Source: Candidatus Sumerlaeota bacterium (GTDB lineage: Bacteria; CG03; SLGR01). From it: a DNA stretch of 9,076 bases. A program made the translations under genes and the position numbers. The stretch spans positions 1-9,076 of the forward strand of contig SLGR01000204.1 of the NCBI GenBank assembly GCA_007136585.1. The letters are read 5' to 3'. Below the pieces are notes generated by a model. The model was not told where the DNA came from. It saw only the letters and a list, made by a program, of their open reading frames with translations, and did not search any database. This document shows, one piece after another, positions 494 to 6,718 of this stretch. How positions within the stretch are numbered: position 1 is the first letter of the stretch; each line of letters begins with the position of its first letter.

Positions 494-1176
494 CTTTTCT
501 CGTCCCCCGTAATCATACCGTCTTTTATCTCTATCGTCCTTTTCGCGTACTCCATTATCGCGGGGTCGTGTGTGGAGAAGATAAAGGTGGTATGGAGCTC
601 CCTGTTCATTTTAAGCATTACCTCCAGGACAGCCCGCCCTGTTTTTGAGTCAAGGTTTGCCGTAGGCTCGTCTGCAAGTACCAGCCCGGGGTCTTTTACC
701 AGGGCCCGGGCGACGGCGACACGCTGTTTCTGTCCTCCGGAGAGTTCTCCCGGTTTCCGGTTCTCAAGGCCACGCAATCCGACCGCATCTAAAATTTTAA
801 AGACCTTTTCATCAACCTCCTTTCCGCCTTTGCCCGCAGCCAGGCGGAGAGCGAACTGGACGTTCTCAAAGGCCGTAAGGACGGGGATGAGGTTGTAGCT
901 CTGGAAAATGAACCCTATGTTAAGGCGTCTTATCTTCGCCAGTTCGTTTGGGGAGAGGACCTCGAGCTCCTTCCCTCTGAAGAAGATCTTTCCTTCGGTG
1001 GGAACATCAAGGCATCCTATCATATTAAGCAGGGTGGTCTTCCCGGAGCCTGAGGGTCCGAATACGGTCGTGAATTCGCCTTTCTCAACTGTAAGGTCAA
1101 CGCCGCGCAGCGCGGCTACCTCAACCGCCCCCTGGCCGTAAAGTTTTCTTACACCTGACATTTCAAGTAAGGGCAT
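490..1176 (-). CDS. ABC transporter ATP-binding protein, LolD/MacB type
   Basis: A 228-residue cytoplasmic ATPase of the usual length for the LolD/FtsE/MacB nucleotide-binding group. All catalytic motifs are present: Walker A GPSGSGKTT (residues 40-48), Q-loop glutamine (Q92, in FQSYNLIP), signature LSGGQ (145-149), Walker B LVLADE (165-170, catalytic E170), D-loop NLDS (174-177) and H-loop histidine (H203, in STHDP). It should hydrolyse ATP to power the permease encoded immediately downstream, which its stop codon overlaps by 4 bp. The ATG at 1176-1174 is preceded by a GGGAGA ribosome site (1184-1189 on the plus strand). The gene probably belonged to an operon led by the TetR gene at 2836-3480, from which an IS110 element now separates it. 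Whether it is still transcribed from the repressor promoter is uncertain. No truncation or missing residue is visible. Confidence 0.95.
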   Translation of the reverse strand: MPLLEMSGVRKLYGQGAVEVAALRGVDLTVEKGEFTTVFGPSGSGKTTLLNMIGCLDVPTEGKIFFRGKELEVLSPNELAKIRRLNIGFIFQSYNLIPVLTAFENVQFALRLAAGKGGKEVDEKVFKILDAVGLRGLENRKPGELSGGQKQRVAVARALVKDPGLVLADEPTANLDSKTGRAVLEVMLKMNRELHTTFIFSTHDPAIMEYAKRTIEIKDGMITGDEKR

Positions 1177-1238
1177 CTATTTTTCTCCCATAATAGTTGT
1201 TACTATGCAGCCATCTTAAAACAGCTGCAATATCCGGC
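1177..1238. other. Intergenic leader of the ABC genes with two small inverted repeats
   Basis: This stretch is probably the native spacer between the repressor and the ATPase, left on the ATPase side of the insertion. It contains the ATPase ribosome site (1184-1189), a 5-bp hairpin ATAGT/ACTAT (1193-1197 with 1202-1206, 4-nt loop) and a 6-bp inverted repeat TGCAGC/GCTGCA (1206-1211 with 1224-1229, 12-nt spacing). No U-tract follows either hairpin on the minus strand, so neither looks like an intrinsic terminator. A weak minus-strand promoter-like pair exists (TTGCAG, 17 bp, CATAGT, with the -10 at 1202-1207), but it matches consensus poorly. The role of the repeats is unknown. Confidence 0.4.
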
Positions 1239-1245
1239 ATCCGTT
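1239..1245. repeat. Left copy of 7-bp direct repeat ATCCGTT at IS end
   Basis: An exact match to 2831-2837. It probably contains the recombination core and adjoining target or donor sequence of the IS110 element. A 7-bp match alone is weak, but both copies sit where element ends are expected from gene positions. Confidence 0.5.
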
Positions 1246-1257
1246 TGTTCTTTTTTG

Positions 1258-1263
1258 TATACT
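1258..1263 (+). promoter_or_regulatory. Candidate -10 element (TATACT) near the IS left end
   Basis: A good -10 hexamer about 13 bp inside the proposed left end. No convincing -35 hexamer lies 15-19 bp upstream in the integrated copy. In IS110 elements a complete promoter is often formed only when the excised circle joins right and left ends; here that junction would put TTAATC 16 bp upstream, itself only a partial -35 match. It could drive the left-end RNA and the transposase. Tentative. Confidence 0.35.
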
Positions 1264-1265
1264 CT

Positions 1266-1430
1266 AAACCGAGGTGATGAGGAACACGCCTTCATTGTTT
1301 GTGTGGCACGACCACGAAAAGGAGAATGGCGCCTCATCTCCCGGCTCTGTGCTTTGATTATATCCTGCGGCTCGACCGCGCAATTCGGGAGGCTAAGCCG
1401 AGCCAGAGTGCATGAGGATTCTCTTCGCCT
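1266..1430 (+). ncRNA. Candidate bridge RNA of the IS110 element
   Basis: The non-coding left end of IS110-group elements encodes a structured bridge RNA that pairs with target and donor DNA and guides the transposase. Here the region downstream of the TATACT box can form a 5' stem-loop (GATGAGG at 1276-1282 with CTTCATT at 1290-1296, two G-U pairs, 7-nt loop), a small hairpin GTGG/CCAC (1303-1306 with 1312-1315), and three nested helices: CCTCAT/ATGAGG (1332-1337 with 1412-1417), CTCT/AGAG (1345-1348 with 1405-1408) and GGCTCG/CGAGCC (1369-1374 with 1399-1404). The last two stack on the 3' side and leave a one-sided 20-nt loop at 1349-1368, a plausible guide loop. The ends of the RNA are estimates, folding was by eye, and guide sequences are not assigned. 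Confidence 0.55.
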
Positions 1431-1457
1431 TAAAAAATTATTTTCAGGAGGTGCTCT

Positions 1458-2831
1458 ATGAAAAAACTCATCGTCGGTGTTGATGTCGCTGAAGCCAAAT
1501 TTGATGTGGCTTTCAGAGATATCAACTGTCAGCCTGTCAGGGCCGATCTGTCCTTCAGTAATTCCTCTGATGGAATCCGGGACCTTATCGGATGCTGCAT
1601 CGCTTCCGCTTCTCTTGCAGGCAAAAAGGTCAAGATTGTTATCGGCATGGAATCCACTTCCAATTTCCATAAGAATCTTGAACGGGCTCTCAGAGACTCT
1701 TCCCGAAACTTTGAGATACACGTTATCAACCCTCTTGCCATCAAGCAGTTCAAGAAAATGAACCTCAAGGTGTACAAGACCGATAAGCTCGATGCTCATA
1801 TGATCGCTTCTTACCTGGCCCGGATGGAGCCGAACCCCTCTTTCGCGCCGCTTCCCGGCCAGGAAGAGCTCAAGGAGCTGACACGGCTCAGGCGGTCTTA
1901 TCTGGAGGAAACCACCCAACTCAAAAACAGGATCAGAAGCCTTCTCAGAATCCATTTCCCCGGATACAAAAGGCTCCTGGGCACGAAAATATCCTCTAAA
2001 ATGCTCATCGCCTTCTCGAACTATTCTTCCCCTGAAGAAATCATCTCCACGGGCATTGATACCCTTGCGGAGTTTTCGGTGTCCTTCAGGCACAGAATTG
2101 GTAGACCTTTCGCGGAGAATCTCGTAAGGCTTGCCGGAAAAGCTCCCAGCAGGGTCCTCCCCGGAGGTATTGCCCTTGCCATCAAGTGGACCGCGCAAAG
2201 TCTTCTCCAGCTTCAGGAACGCATTAAAATGCTCGATGCTGAAATCGTCGCCATGCTCGACGAATACTTCCCGGAACACAAGCTTCTCAGCATCCCGGGC
2301 ATCGGCCCGATATCCGCAGCCGCTATCATCGCAGAGGTCGGAGACATCAAGAGATTCTCTACTCCCGAAAAGTTCATCGGCTATATCGGGCTTTACCCGG
2401 TTGTATGGGAATCCGGTGAGATGAAAACCAGGTTTCAGATGACATACAAAGGCAATAAATCCCTCAAGATGACTTTCCTTGTCGCGACCGCCGCGGCCAG
2501 ACAGTTCAACCCCGCCATAAGACAGATGTATGACAGGCTCAGGGCAAGAGGAAAGTCCAAGAGGGCCGCCGGCGGTGCTGTTGCCAGAAAGCTTGCCTGT
2601 ATAGTATATGCCATACTCGCCGGCGACAAGAAATGGGATCCGGAAATCGCCTCGGAAGGATTGAGGAAGTCTCAGCAGATGGCTGAATCTCTTACTGAAA
2701 AGAAAGAGAGGAACGAGCTGCCCACTGAGGTCGTGCCTCAAAACGCGGTCATTGCCGCAATGGAGTTTAATGGCCAGCGTCGCTCCCCTGGGAATAGTAT
2801 ACTTAATGGAGGCGCAACTGGAAACCCTTAA
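1458..2831 (+). CDS. IS110-family transposase (DEDD plus serine recombinase)
   Basis: A 457-residue recombinase that moves the element, guided by the element's bridge RNA. The N-terminal RuvC-like DEDD domain shows GVDVAEAKFD with D9, GMESTSNFH with E65, and KTDKLDAH with D109 and D112. A helical, charged linker follows (about 135-275). The C-terminal Transposase_20 domain starts at LLSIPGIGPISAAAI (about 277-290) and includes the SG motif (S319-G320), whose serine is the likely covalent nucleophile by comparison with IS621, then KGNKSLKM (331-338). All key residues are present, so the enzyme looks intact. A polar tail of about 60 residues after KKWDPE (391-396) makes it longer than most relatives (roughly 320-420). 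The ATG is set by a strong AGGAGG site at 1446-1451, 6 nt upstream. Its stop ends 4 bp from the converging TetR stop, and codon use differs from the neighbours. Confidence 0.95.
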   Translation: MKKLIVGVDVAEAKFDVAFRDINCQPVRADLSFSNSSDGIRDLIGCCIASASLAGKKVKIVIGMESTSNFHKNLERALRDSSRNFEIHVINPLAIKQFKKMNLKVYKTDKLDAHMIASYLARMEPNPSFAPLPGQEELKELTRLRRSYLEETTQLKNRIRSLLRIHFPGYKRLLGTKISSKMLIAFSNYSSPEEIISTGIDTLAEFSVSFRHRIGRPFAENLVRLAGKAPSRVLPGGIALAIKWTAQSLLQLQERIKMLDAEIVAMLDEYFPEHKLLSIPGIGPISAAAIIAEVGDIKRFSTPEKFIGYIGLYPVVWESGEMKTRFQMTYKGNKSLKMTFLVATAAARQFNPAIRQMYDRLRARGKSKRAAGGAVARKLACIVYAILAGDKKWDPEIASEGLRKSQQMAESLTEKKERNELPTEVVPQNAVIAAMEFNGQRRSPGNSILNGGATGNP

Positions 2832-2837
2832 TCCGTT
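2831..2837. repeat. Right copy of 7-bp direct repeat ATCCGTT at IS end
   Basis: An exact match to 1239-1245. Its first base is the last base of the transposase stop codon, and its last two bases belong to the TetR stop codon read on the other strand. If it marks the element's end, the right end has practically no non-coding sequence. Confidence 0.5.
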
Positions 2838-3480
2838 ATCGTCTATTTTTATTGACAACTGTTATTATATCTCCTTTTTTTCCTATTCCGTCTTCCATAA
2901 AATCTATCATCCTGTCCACTATCTTCATATCCCAATTTTTAAGGGATGTCCTTTCCATTATATACTCGTTTACGGAGGCCCCCAGCTTAAAAAGGATGTA
3001 TGAGGTAAACTCTATGTCAATATCCTTCTTAAGATCACCCTGCCGGATTCCCCGTTTGAGCATCTCCCTGTAAAAACCGAGGGCCCGGGACTCTATCCCG
3101 TAGAGCTGCCTGCTGAGGAGTTCCTTGTCCCGGTAAAGGTGCCCGGAGATAGCCTCAAGGCGGGGGTTCTCCCGGGCAAGCTTTAAACTTTCCGCGTAAA
3201 GGTCCTTAAAGGTATCAAAGAAACTCCTGTCTCTTTCCGCTGAAATAAGAGGGGCAAGGCGGCGGAGCTTCATATCAAAAAAAGATTCCGTGATATACTC
3301 GTAGAGATCAAACTTGTCCCTGAAATACTGGTAGAAACTGCCGCTTGCTATCCCGGATCTTTTTATGATCCTGGCGACGCTTGCCTGGCGGAAAGGATAT
3401 GCGGCAAACTCCTCCTCGGCGCTTTTTATTATCCTGCGCCTTTTCTTTTCGGGCAGGTTAAAGAATGTCTCTTTCGGCAT
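2836..3480 (-). CDS. TetR/AcrR-family transcriptional repressor
   Basis: A 214-residue ligand-responsive DNA-binding protein of normal family length. The N-terminal TetR domain is clear: basic helix 1 KKRRRIIKSAEEEFA (about 12-26) and a helix-turn-helix at about 33-53 with SVARIIKRSGIASGSFYQYF, followed by RDKFDLYEYI, the usual start of helix 4. The rest is a helical effector-binding and dimer domain that defines no ligand. The ATG at 3480-3478 follows an AGGAG site (3484-3488 on the plus strand). Just upstream are two tandem operator-like repeats overlapping a consensus promoter, so it probably represses itself. It most likely headed an operon with the ABC ATPase and permease and controlled their expression in response to a compound they export. 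The IS110 element begins immediately after its stop; if the right repeat marks the element's end, the protein is full length. Confidence 0.93.
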   Translation of the reverse strand: MPKETFFNLPEKKRRRIIKSAEEEFAAYPFRQASVARIIKRSGIASGSFYQYFRDKFDLYEYITESFFDMKLRRLAPLISAERDRSFFDTFKDLYAESLKLARENPRLEAISGHLYRDKELLSRQLYGIESRALGFYREMLKRGIRQGDLKKDIDIEFTSYILFKLGASVNEYIMERTSLKNWDMKIVDRMIDFMEDGIGKKGDIITVVNKNRR

Positions 3481-3624: not shown

Positions 3625-5328
3625 GTGAAAAAAATAAGGATAGTATTATTCCTTCTCATTGCGCCGGTTGCGGTTTCTTCCGCCCTGGCCGGGACAGGTA
3701 TAATAATTCCCCTGGAGCCCCCTGATTCCATCATTATCACGCCCTCTGATACCGTATACGAGATAGACGGTTTTTTCCTTGAGGAAGATACCGGCCGAAG
3801 ATCTTTTGAGTGGCACTCCCGTATATCGCATGAGCAGCACGGCGTTTCCGGGGCAGGGTCGGGTTCAAGTTTCCTGGATTCGGGGGGGCATACGGTGGGT
3901 GAGGTTGAGTTCAGGAGTTACAGCCCTGTGGGGGAGAACTGGAGCGGGGAGCTGAATACTACCTTTCAGGTTACCCAGTCCCGGAGATACGACCCCTCGG
4001 ATTTTTCTGTGCGGCAGATCCGGTATATACTGAGTGATTCTTCCGGGCGCAACCACCTGACCCTGGGAGACTATTACGCCAGCCTCTCCCAGTACTCCAT
4101 GAACAGGTCGCTCAAGGGGCTGGGGTACCAGAGGAACTTCAGGGAAGGGTGGTATATGCGGATTGCCGGCGGGGTCTTTCATCCCCGGTGGGACCATGTG
4201 GCAGGACTTGGCAAGAACAGGCCTGTTGACCGCCGCGCTGTGGGTCTGAGGGCGCAGGCGGCGGGGGAAAGGAGTATCCTGGGGGTAAACGTTCTTACGG
4301 CCTGGGACTGGGACAGGGACCCCGAGCGCACAACCCAGACAACATACAGCCAGATGCTTTATTCCCTTGACTGGGAACACCGGGTATCCGGTATAATCCT
4401 TTCCGGAGAGCACGCTTACGCTCCCACCAGAAGGCAGCCTGCCGGGGGAAGCGACGAGGATATAACCGGAAGCGCGAACCGGATCAATACCAGGGCGCAC
4501 GCCGGGAACCTGAGGTTCCAGTTCAGGGGAGAGCATGTGACCCCTGATTTTTATACCATGGCCGGCGGGGCGGCAGTTGACCGTTTCAGGATATACGCCC
4601 GGGGCGATTACAGGATCGACAGCAACTGGAGCGTATACGCCGGCAACGACTGGTACCGGAACAATCTCAAGGACCGGCTTACGTCTACCACAAGGACCCT
4701 TATCCCGGAGATCGGCCTCCGCGCCAGGGGGCTTTTTGACAGGAGGAGCCTTCTCTTTACATCCGGGATAAGGCGGAGGGTTATCAGGACGGAGAAACCC
4801 GTAGGGCGGGAGAGTATTTCAGACCGTCTCAACCTGAGCCTGGGGGACAGGTACAGGGCATTATCCCTGCGGGGGGAGACCGAGATAATGCTAAATAACA
4901 GGAGAAAACCATCCCCGGGTACGAAAACCCGGGATTACCTCTACAGGCTGGTCGCGGACTCCCGGCACCTGTTTTTGAGCGGATCCCTGGAGATGAGGCC
5001 CTACATTACCCTCTCACACCAGGAGATAGAGGATTCTTTAACCGGAAAACCCGTGCGTATAAACTCCCTCGATTTTGACCTTCGGGGGACAGCTGTAAAC
5101 AACCTTTCTTTCGGTCTCTCGTACGGGAACAGGAGAAACAGGAGCAGCATACCCGGACAGGATAACAGCCGGGAGGTAAGGTACTCGGCCAACGCTGAAA
5201 GGAGTATGGAGTTTCTCGGAGGGGCCCGTATTCAGGCGGATTTCGGGCAGAGCAGATACAGGTTCTCGGATAGCGAAAGAAACTACAGGGAGAACTTTTT
5301 CCAGCTCTCCTTCAACAGGAGCTTCTGA
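3625..5328 (+). CDS. Outer-membrane beta-barrel protein, unrecognised family
   Basis: A 567-residue exported protein. The GTG start is chosen because it begins a textbook signal peptide (lysines at 2-3, hydrophobic core, ALA cleavage motif at 20-22); no in-frame ATG would keep it. After a short segment (about 23-60), the chain is a long series of amphipathic strands with alternating aromatic and polar residues, turns rich in Gly, Asn, Asp and Arg, and many Tyr/Trp residues. It ends in NFFQLSFNRSF, with the terminal Phe recognised by the BAM machinery. This indicates an outer-membrane beta-barrel from about residue 90 to the end, large enough for well over 16 strands. I see no plug or TonB box, so a porin or an anchor for the two exported neighbours are both possible. 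No Shine-Dalgarno site precedes the GTG, and the mRNA may be almost leaderless. It is probably the first gene of an operon with the next two. Confidence 0.8.
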   Translation: MKKIRIVLFLLIAPVAVSSALAGTGIIIPLEPPDSIIITPSDTVYEIDGFFLEEDTGRRSFEWHSRISHEQHGVSGAGSGSSFLDSGGHTVGEVEFRSYSPVGENWSGELNTTFQVTQSRRYDPSDFSVRQIRYILSDSSGRNHLTLGDYYASLSQYSMNRSLKGLGYQRNFREGWYMRIAGGVFHPRWDHVAGLGKNRPVDRRAVGLRAQAAGERSILGVNVLTAWDWDRDPERTTQTTYSQMLYSLDWEHRVSGIILSGEHAYAPTRRQPAGGSDEDITGSANRINTRAHAGNLRFQFRGEHVTPDFYTMAGGAAVDRFRIYARGDYRIDSNWSVYAGNDWYRNNLKDRLTSTTRTLIPEIGLRARGLFDRRSLLFTSGIRRRVIRTEKPVGRESISDRLNLSLGDRYRALSLRGETEIMLNNRRKPSPGTKTRDYLYRLVADSRHLFLSGSLEMRPYITLSHQEIEDSLTGKPVRINSLDFDLRGTAVNNLSFGLSYGNRRNRSSIPGQDNSREVRYSANAERSMEFLGGARIQADFGQSRYRFSDSERNYRENFFQLSFNRSF

Positions 5329-5338
5329 GGAGCTAAAA

Positions 5339-6718
5339 ATGAATATACGGACTGATAACAGGAACAGGTTGTTTTTTCAGGCGTCTCTTCTGGGGGTTAT
5401 AGCTGTGCTTGCGCTCTCTTCCCCTGCGGCGGGACAGTGGTGGCGTTTCGGGGCGGATGCGGGAACACCGTTCTTTACCGATCTTCTCTTTAATAATATT
5501 GACGCGATCAATGTCGACAGGAACCTGCGTATCTCCGCAGACGACCTGGATGCGGGGAGTGTCCGGGTCAGGGGTCGGGTGGAAGCCGACCGGGGGGTTA
5601 TAGGGCGCGTTGAGAGCAGTCTCGACGGGGGGCTGAACTGGCAGGAGATCCCTTTCAACGAACGCGGTCTTTTTGCGTTTGAGTTCAGACCCGATATAGA
5701 AAGGGATTACCGGTTTATGATAAGGGCTTTCTCTACTACCGGGCAGGTAAGCGACGAGCTTGACCACAGTTTTGTTTTCAGGGTCGTCCGGGAGGATACC
5801 CGCGCCCTGGCCCGGAAGGTCTTTGAGGAGATCATCCGCCTCTACTCCGCCAGGGACCGCGCAAGGTTCATGTCTTACGTATCCAGCAGGTTTACCGGGA
5901 ACGCTGTCGCCCTTGACAGCGCCCTGAGCAGTGATTTTAGTTTATTTGACTCCATACGTATTACCCCCAATATACAGAGCATGGGTGAGTTCAACGGGAA
6001 GTGGAATATATATTTCAGCTTTAACCGCCAGCTTCGCTCCGCGCGGACCGGTGAAACCTTCAGGGACCGGGCCAACACCTCCCTGACACTTATAAGAGAA
6101 GGGGAAAGCTACAGGCTTTATGAGCTTGCGACTCCCCTGATCTTCGGCCTCTCTGATCCTTCCGAAGTTGCCACTTCAGATACCCTGGACAGAGGAACGG
6201 ACGAGATAATAGAGGTTGACGAAGACGGAGAGATAAAAATAGTGACCCCTGATGACTCCGAGGAACTCGATGACCCGGACTCCGACCCCGCCCCGGGTAT
6301 TCCGCATAATATAAGGGAAGGGTCGGTAGATCTTTCAGTACAAGTCTATGCTGACGGCTCCGGGATCGGACACGGGGAGGCTTTCTCGCTCTTTGACTAC
6401 ACTAAGAAAGGCATCTATGCCACAATGACTTTCGGAAACGAACTCGGGTCATTTGTCGTATTCGGAGATGAAGTTGAGGCAGGAGAGATACTGGGTTCCG
6501 GTCCAATATCCTCTGTAACTTCAGTCCCGGCCGAGATGGGGTTCCTCGGGGAGGATTCCGAGCCGGAAGAGGGGCGGCTCTACGCCCTGAAGCTTATCGA
6601 CGGAACTTACGCGGTGCTCCAGCTTTCGGATGTTGTAATTAATGATGATGAGGGAGGAATATTTGAAACAATGACCTTCCAGTACCGGCACCAGCGTAAC
6701 GGGACCCCTAACTTTTAA
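5339..6718 (+). CDS. Secreted multi-domain protein (Ig-like, NTF2-like, acidic linker, C-terminal beta domain)
   Basis: A 459-residue exported protein. An N-terminal signal peptide (hydrophobic about 17-31) ends near AAG-QWW (32/33). About residues 55-150 resemble an Ig-like or fibronectin-like beta domain (VRVRGRVEAD, then VESSLDGGLNWQEIPF). About 155-270 begin with helices (RALARKVFEEIIRLYS) followed by strands, as in NTF2/SnoaL-like folds. Residues 281-320 are a very acidic linker (17 Asp/Glu of 36 at 281-316). Residues 328-459 form a beta-rich domain with YALKLIDGTYAVLQL (415-429) and TFQYRHQ (446-452), similar in pattern to C-terminal 'Y-x-V-K-T-x-D-G-K-Y' beta domains of some secreted proteins. 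These domain calls are by pattern only. No lipobox is seen, so it is periplasmic or surface-exposed. A GAGGAG site at 5327-5332 overlaps the previous stop codon, indicating tight coupling to the barrel gene, likely its partner. Confidence 0.75.
   Translation: MNIRTDNRNRLFFQASLLGVIAVLALSSPAAGQWWRFGADAGTPFFTDLLFNNIDAINVDRNLRISADDLDAGSVRVRGRVEADRGVIGRVESSLDGGLNWQEIPFNERGLFAFEFRPDIERDYRFMIRAFSTTGQVSDELDHSFVFRVVREDTRALARKVFEEIIRLYSARDRARFMSYVSSRFTGNAVALDSALSSDFSLFDSIRITPNIQSMGEFNGKWNIYFSFNRQLRSARTGETFRDRANTSLTLIREGESYRLYELATPLIFGLSDPSEVATSDTLDRGTDEIIEVDEDGEIKIVTPDDSEELDDPDSDPAPGIPHNIREGSVDLSVQVYADGSGIGHGEAFSLFDYTKKGIYATMTFGNELGSFVVFGDEVEAGEILGSGPISSVTSVPAEMGFLGEDSEPEEGRLYALKLIDGTYAVLQLSDVVINDDEGGIFETMTFQYRHQRNGTPNF

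What the first reader, a model, noticed from the sequence alone, without database searches (positions are those of the whole stretch)
1246..1457. Structured left end with a candidate bridge RNA
The 210-bp non-coding left end has a 7-bp 5' stem-loop and three nested helices (16 Watson-Crick pairs) with a one-sided 20-nt loop at 1349-1368. This is the kind of architecture and size known for bridge RNAs of IS110-group elements. The transposase has every DEDD residue and the serine, so the system may be active, and its long C-terminal tail marks it as a distinct branch. A new guide-RNA recombinase would be worth characterising.
Basis: partly seen in the sequence, partly recalled or inferred. Interest (0 to 1): 0.65.

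Follow-up and report, generated by a model that had tools for sequence, protein, structure and literature searches.

The report
Jumping gene guided to start sites
This is a mobile DNA element of a known family (IS110) whose own guide RNA appears to carry a copy of the ribosome-binding signal found in front of bacterial genes, which explains why it and many relatives insert just upstream of gene start codons.

Summary
The left end of this IS110-family element does encode a bridge RNA, but not with the structure or boundaries first proposed. The element runs from 1187 to 2870 between two CT cores (1185-1186, 2871-2872). It interrupts the Shine-Dalgarno (SD) sequence between a TetR and an ABC-transporter gene; an uninterrupted orthologous site exists in a related genome. 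Joining the ends creates a TTGACA-17-CATAAT promoter. The RNA has a 5' hairpin, a target loop (1269-1344) and a donor loop (1345-1408). Its guide AAAAGGAGAA (1317-1326) is complementary to the interrupted SD, ATTATATC (1357-1364) matches the right end, GGGAG (1387-1391) the left end.

A covariance model led to about 25 relatives from another bacterial lineage with the same layout, strong structural covariation, and guides that covary with their own targets and donors. Of 38 insertion sites, 34 have an ATG 3-9 nt from the core. IS900's published target motif is the same, so the target class is known; linking it to SD-carrying bridge RNAs across distant hosts appears new in the papers I could search. 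Transcription and activity are untested.

The parts
1174..1184 (+). Left target flank: CAT (reverse complement of the ABC gene's ATG start codon, 1174-1176) plus 8 nt
   Evidence: ABC ORF 490-1176 on - strand; CAT 8 nt from the core; 34 of 38 related sites have CAT 3-9 nt from the core
1185..1186 (.). Left core dinucleotide CT
   Evidence: CTCC repeated at both ends; uninterrupted orthologous site in L108; relatives L034 and L035 also CT
1187..1457 (+). Non-coding left end (LE) of the IS110 element, 271 nt
   Evidence: 84% identity with L019 over 1183-1497
1189..1194 (+). -10 hexamer CATAAT, joined to the -35 in the right end only in the circular form
   Evidence: 11/12 consensus match at the RE-LE junction; 4 of 5000 shuffles reach it
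1206..1229 (+). 5' stem-loop of the predicted bridge RNA
   Evidence: 6 pairs; 5 of 6 kept in L019
1269..1344 (+). Target-binding loop (TBL): outer stem 1269-1282/1332-1344, apical hairpin 1303-1306/1312-1315
   Evidence: 12/12 outer pairs kept in L019; model R2, built without the window, finds 1276-1390 at 20.7 bits, next best in the window 6.2
1291..1302 (+). Candidate left target guide TTCATTGTTTGT, containing CAT (start-codon complement)
   Evidence: Weak in the window itself (5 of the 7 positions nearest the core match, read by hand in the register); LTG covaries with own left target in the related group
1317..1326 (+). Right target guide AAAAGGAGAA, a Shine-Dalgarno copy complementary to the interrupted target across the core
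   Evidence: 10-nt exact match; 2 of 2000 shuffles reach it
1345..1408 (+). Donor-binding loop (DBL): stems 1345-1349/1404-1408 and 1351-1354/1395-1398, hairpin 1367-1370/1376-1379
   Evidence: 13/13 pairs kept in L019
1357..1364 (+). Left donor guide ATTATATC = last bases of the right end plus first core base
   Evidence: 8-nt match; 11 of 2000 shuffles reach it, 0 of 2000 reach both RTG and LDG
1387..1391 (+). Right donor guide GGGAG = reverse complement of core CT plus CCC of the left end
   Evidence: 5-nt match, not significant alone (1001 of 2000 shuffles); position as in relatives, where it covaries
1458..2831 (+). IS110-group DEDD recombinase (transposase), 457 aa
   Evidence: PF01548, PF02371; NF033542 247 bits against cutoff 140; matches ISCro4 and IS621 structures
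2832..2870 (+). Non-coding right end (RE), 39 nt
   Evidence: shared with L019
2852..2857 (+). -35 hexamer TTGACA of the circle-junction promoter
2871..2872 (.). Right core dinucleotide CT
   Evidence: CTCC repeat and uninterrupted orthologous site
2873..2880 (+). Right target flank CCTTTTTT (SD, reverse complement)
   Evidence: uninterrupted orthologous site GGGAAAAAAGGAGGATAATATATG in L108

Best explanation
The region is the left end of an IS110-group insertion sequence and encodes a bridge RNA. When the element is excised as a circle, its joined ends form a promoter that transcribes the RNA (inferred). The RNA holds two loops on the recombinase. [quoted passage not shown] The second (1345-1408) pairs with the element's own joined ends. 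Recombination at the CT core inserts the element inside the SD, and the element's left end (GGG plus core AG) leaves an SD-like sequence in front of the gene. Shown here: boundaries, uninterrupted site, guide complementarity, conserved architecture, and guide/target and guide/donor covariation in relatives. Inferred: transcription, RNA binding and activity.
For: Recombinase family. Clean uninterrupted orthologous site in G004. RTG and LDG matches: 2/2000 and 11/2000 shuffles, both together 0/2000; junction promoter 4/5000. Model R1 (window + L019) finds the left end of a 29%-identical IS110 of another lineage, L086, at 27.2 bits, E 3.7e-5. L086 has a 9-nt LDG, a 7-nt RDG and an AGGAGAA RTG matching its own SD target. 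Model R2 (25 relatives, window not included) finds the window at 20.7 bits against 6.2 for the next hit. Covariation in 25 relatives: 11 of 14 pairs change on both sides, 59 cells, 0/500 shuffles. Core matched by guide 24/24; RTG 130/160 against permuted maximum 128 (0/10000); LTG 3/2000. RDG 22/25, LDG 135/138, handshake 14/23, each 0/5000 permutations. ATG 3-9 nt from core at 34 of 38 sites, 14% expected. Independent sites of identical copies, e.g. 4 of 4 in G548 and 4 of 4 in G459.
Against: No RNA data. Fold energy is not better than shuffles. Only one full homologue of the window's RNA exists in the data, with no two-sided compensatory change. LTG and RDG in the window are not significant on their own. 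R2 misses the window in the stricter genome-wide search, and R1 finds only one further member of the relative group. L019 shows CC instead of CT at the left core and its guides no longer match well, so that copy is probably inactive. Permutation tests ignore relatedness among elements. More distant relatives fit less well: in G408 the ATG is not consistently near the core.
Confidence: 0.9

Rival explanations
1. Bridge RNA present, but with the reader's three nested helices (1332-1337/1412-1417, 1345-1348/1405-1408, 1369-1374/1399-1404).
For: All 16 pairs exist in the window.
Against: Two of the three helices break in L019 (14/16 pairs kept) against 25/25 for the alternative; it uses up the 3' arm of the conserved target-loop stem and part of the donor loop.
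Confidence: 0.05
2. Insertion near SD sequences reflects survival only: insertions are tolerated just upstream of genes, and the AAAAGGAGAA match is chance because purine-rich runs are common.
For: SD-like motifs are common, and the transposase gene itself has AGGAGG in front; two of 154 other 220-nt stretches of the contig also reach a 10-nt match.
Against: Guide cores follow target cores 24/24 (CT with AG, CA with TG); RTG beats all 10000 permutations; identical copies sit at the same spacing at independent sites; 34/38 against 14% expected.
Confidence: 0.05
3. The segment is a leader with a small ORF (ATG at 1325, MAPHLPALCFDYILRLDRAIREAKPSQSA) and SD AAAAGGAG.
For: ATG and SD-like sequence are present (read by eye).
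Against: The SD lies almost directly against the ATG, too close for normal initiation; in L019 the frame is cut by an early TAG (read by eye).
Confidence: 0.02
4. The guide RNA lies downstream of the transposase, as in IS1111-type elements (seekRNA).
For: Known for IS1111-type elements (PMC11187229, PMC11208160).
Against: Only 39 non-coding nt lie between the stop codon and the right core, and the left end is 271 nt.
Confidence: 0.01

Closest known systems
IS621 (IS110 group) bridge RNA system (PMC11208160, PMC11208158)
   Same: DEDD recombinase plus serine domain; long left end with the RNA; 5' stem-loop, target loop then donor loop, each as stem-guide-hairpin-guide; CT core; promoter formed across the RE-LE junction; RTG and RDG include the core complement
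   Different: IS621 targets REP elements, this element a Shine-Dalgarno/start-codon region; about 220-nt instead of 177-nt RNA (predicted); recombinase 457 aa with an extra C-terminal tail
IS900 of Mycobacterium avium subsp. paratuberculosis (IS110 family)
   Same: Published target motif CATGNNNNNNTCTCCTT (PMC8141618) has the same order and spacing as this target, CAT-N7-TCTCCTT
ISEc11 / ISEc21 seekRNA elements (PMC11187229)
   Same: RNA from a non-coding end guides target choice; circular intermediate with a junction promoter
   Different: ISEc11 carries its RNA downstream of the transposase; ISEc21 targets a site inside IS3-family transposase genes
TIGR-Tas (NF052498 hit, PMC12045711)
   Same: Shares the RNA-binding C-terminal domain (44 bits, below the cutoff of 100)
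   Different: Endonuclease with a tandem guide array; not a transposon

Membership tests
IS110 family, IS110 group | DEDD RuvC-like domain plus Transposase_20 domain with conserved serine | tested here: met
   PF01548, PF02371, NF033542 above cutoffs; residues D9, E65, D109, D112, S319 aligned
IS110 family, IS110 group | Left non-coding end longer than right end | tested here: met
   271 nt against 39 nt
IS110 family, IS110 group | Insertion at a short core without target duplication beyond it | tested here: met
   Uninterrupted orthologous site L108
IS110 bridge RNA | Two internal loops complementary to target and to donor, on the strands expected | tested here: met
   RTG and LDG exact matches; RDG 5 nt; LTG weak in the window but covarying in relatives
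IS110 bridge RNA | Conserved secondary structure with covariation | tested here: met
   Met in 25 relatives; in the window's own lineage only one homologue, no two-sided change; linked by reciprocal model hits
IS110 bridge RNA | Promoter reconstituted at the RE-LE junction | tested here: met
   Sequence only: TTGACA-17-CATAAT
IS110 bridge RNA | RNA is transcribed and bound by the recombinase | not testable with these tools
   needs RNA and protein experiments
IS1111 group | Subterminal inverted repeats and RNA in a long right end | tested here: not met
   right end 39 nt; no inverted repeat pair at the two element ends among those listed
IS900-type target specificity | Target CATG-N6-TCTCCTT | tested here: met
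   CATCTATTTTTCTCCTT: matches except the G after CAT (against PMC8141618)

The most novel reading that the evidence does not exclude
A broad, cross-lineage branch of IS110 elements carries bridge RNAs fixed on the translation-initiation signal: the right guide is a Shine-Dalgarno copy and the left guide reads the start codon. They can insert ahead of almost any gene while leaving an SD-like sequence from their own end, and this also explains the long-known IS900 target.
Probability: 0.75. Interest if true: 0.7.

Novelty: new member of a known kind. Interest (0 to 1): 0.6.

Why it matters
Bridge RNAs were described with narrow targets such as REP elements. Here the guide itself is a Shine-Dalgarno sequence, so one RNA gives access to many genes while insertion stays upstream of the coding sequence and an SD-like sequence is left behind. 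That would be a way for an RNA-guided transposon to spread with little harm. It offers a mechanism for the IS900-type target motif and supplies about 25 naturally matched guide-target-donor sets for recombinase engineering. The link is testable by changing ten bases (1317-1326).

Tried and rejected
Rfam found nothing. Protein-pattern scans of genome contigs and viral contigs found no close relative, and a viral scan for the left-end pattern found none. A genome-contig scan with the left-end pattern returned 30 loci; apart from L056 and L063, which are the already known L019 and L035 contigs, none encoded an IS110 protein or showed left-end homology beyond the pattern itself. The L042, L043, L049 and L052 pattern hits are EF-Tu coding sequence. 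The idea that 1185-1253 is a repeat used as target was dropped: the segment occurs only at element ends. Fold energy alone was uninformative. Tail-based classification and a recombinase tree were not pursued. The IS900 sequence could not be reached with the collections left.

Full report
What was checked. The window comes from a draft genome (1.88 Mb, 257 contigs) with a single copy of the element. A related contig in the same order carries the public title 'Elusimicrobia bacterium'. The transposase at 1458-2831 is an IS110-family recombinase with all catalytic residues.

Element boundaries. A contig of another family in the same order (L019, G004) holds an internally deleted derivative: the left end (84% identity over 1183-1497), then the last 35 codons and the right end, with the transposase body missing. 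Ends shared with L019, a CTCC repeat at both ends, and an orthologous TetR-ABC operon without insertion in G004 (TetR 67% identical) fix the core at 1185-1186 / 2871-2872. The reconstructed uninterrupted site GGAAAAAAAGGAGAAAAATAGATG aligns without gaps to GGGAAAAAAGGAGGATAATATATG in G004. The element therefore sits in the SD of the ABC gene, which overlaps the 3' end of the TetR gene. Two more loci of this lineage (L034, a short remnant, and L035, cut by a contig end) also have the left end 5-8 nt from an ATG.

Guides. Two stretches of the left end stand out. 1317-1326 is a 10-nt complement of the target top strand across the core. 1357-1364 equals the right end plus the first core base. Shuffles reach these in 2/2000 and 11/2000 cases, and both together never. 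GGGAG at 1387-1391 fits the right donor guide but is not significant alone. The circle junction reads TTGACA-17-CATAAT, 11 of 12 consensus positions, against 9 of 12 at either inserted end.

Structure. The best model is a 5' hairpin 1206-1229, a target loop with outer stem 1269-1282/1332-1344, and a donor loop 1345-1408 with hairpin 1367-1370/1376-1379. Two sequences cannot prove a structure, so a covariance model (R1) was run over other IS110 loci. It hit L086 (transposase 29% identical, other lineage) directly upstream of that transposase at 27.2 bits. L086 shows LDG TAGTTATCT (9 nt), RDG ACAAGAG (7 nt), RTG AGGAGAA, and an SD target in front of a ribonucleotide-reductase-like gene (gene identity is my reading of the sequence).

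The relative group. A search in the class of that genome gave 29 more loci. The alignment of 25 left-end RNAs folds with 11 of 14 pairs changing on both sides; 59 such cells against a shuffled mean of 16, 0 of 500 shuffles. The apical target hairpin also covaries (GTAG/CTAC, ATAG/CTAT, ACAG/CTGT, GCG/CGC). The window shows the same order of parts, and a hairpin loop that starts with C and ends with GA recurs in both loops. A model built from these 25 alone (R2) finds the window at 1276-1390 with 20.7 bits, next hit 6.2, and finds left ends in L087, L140 and L143; L004 and L085 are marginal.

Guide covariation. Guide core matches target core in 24 of 24 elements, including elements with CA cores. 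RTG matches its own target better than all 10000 permutations; LTG does so in one register, 3/2000 (ten registers were tried). RDG, LDG and the two-base handshake segment match their own ends, 0/5000 each. These tests do not correct for relatedness. Of 38 sites, 34 have an ATG 3-9 nt from the core (14% at random positions), 30 of them opening an ORF of at least 50 codons or running to the end of the locus. Left-flank positions were taken from left-end motifs or from comparisons of copies. The more distant G408 and G436 elements were not counted: in G436 three of four sites fit, in G408 it is inconsistent.

Comparison with what is known. All testable defining features of IS110-group bridge RNA elements are met. 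IS900's published target motif CATGNNNNNNTCTCCTT (PMC8141618) has the same spacing as this site. The bridge RNA papers and the seekRNA paper do not mention IS900, or SD or start-codon targeting, in the term searches made, and other searches found no such link. The library holds only open-licence papers, so an earlier report cannot be excluded.

Verdict. The element is a new member of a known kind, with a target class known from IS900. The new content is the guide-level explanation and its breadth.

Noticed in passing
window 2836-3480 (-): The last codons of the TetR gene are supplied by the element's right end: the original end was ..GKKGEK* and is now ..GKKGDIITVVNKNRR*. Orthologues in G004 (L108) and G001 (L109) are uninterrupted.
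   Followed up: yes
L019 1196-1663 (same contig as L038, L056): Internally deleted, non-autonomous derivative that keeps the whole bridge RNA region and both ends; its own guides no longer match its ends or target well.
   Followed up: partly
L034 1470-1575: Remnant of about 100 bp of the same element family upstream of another gene, right flank again SD-like (CTCCTTTTTT).
   Followed up: partly
L035 / L036 1-120: Left end of a further relative cut by the contig end in another family of the phylum; its partial left guide TCATTG matches its own left target TCATTG.
   Followed up: partly
L146-L161: Several genomes carry up to four near-identical copies of SD-type elements at independent gene starts (G548, G459, G184).
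   Followed up: partly
window 2640-2831: The transposase has about 60 residues beyond the IS110 domains; part of this tail is conserved in L019 (60% over 35 codons) and borders the right end.
   Followed up: no
window 3625-5328 and 5339-6718 (+): Two long ORFs without any Pfam or NCBIfam match.
   Followed up: no
L132, L133, L134, L136: In these relatives the apical target hairpin is longer than in the others (up to about 15 nt between the arms).
   Followed up: no
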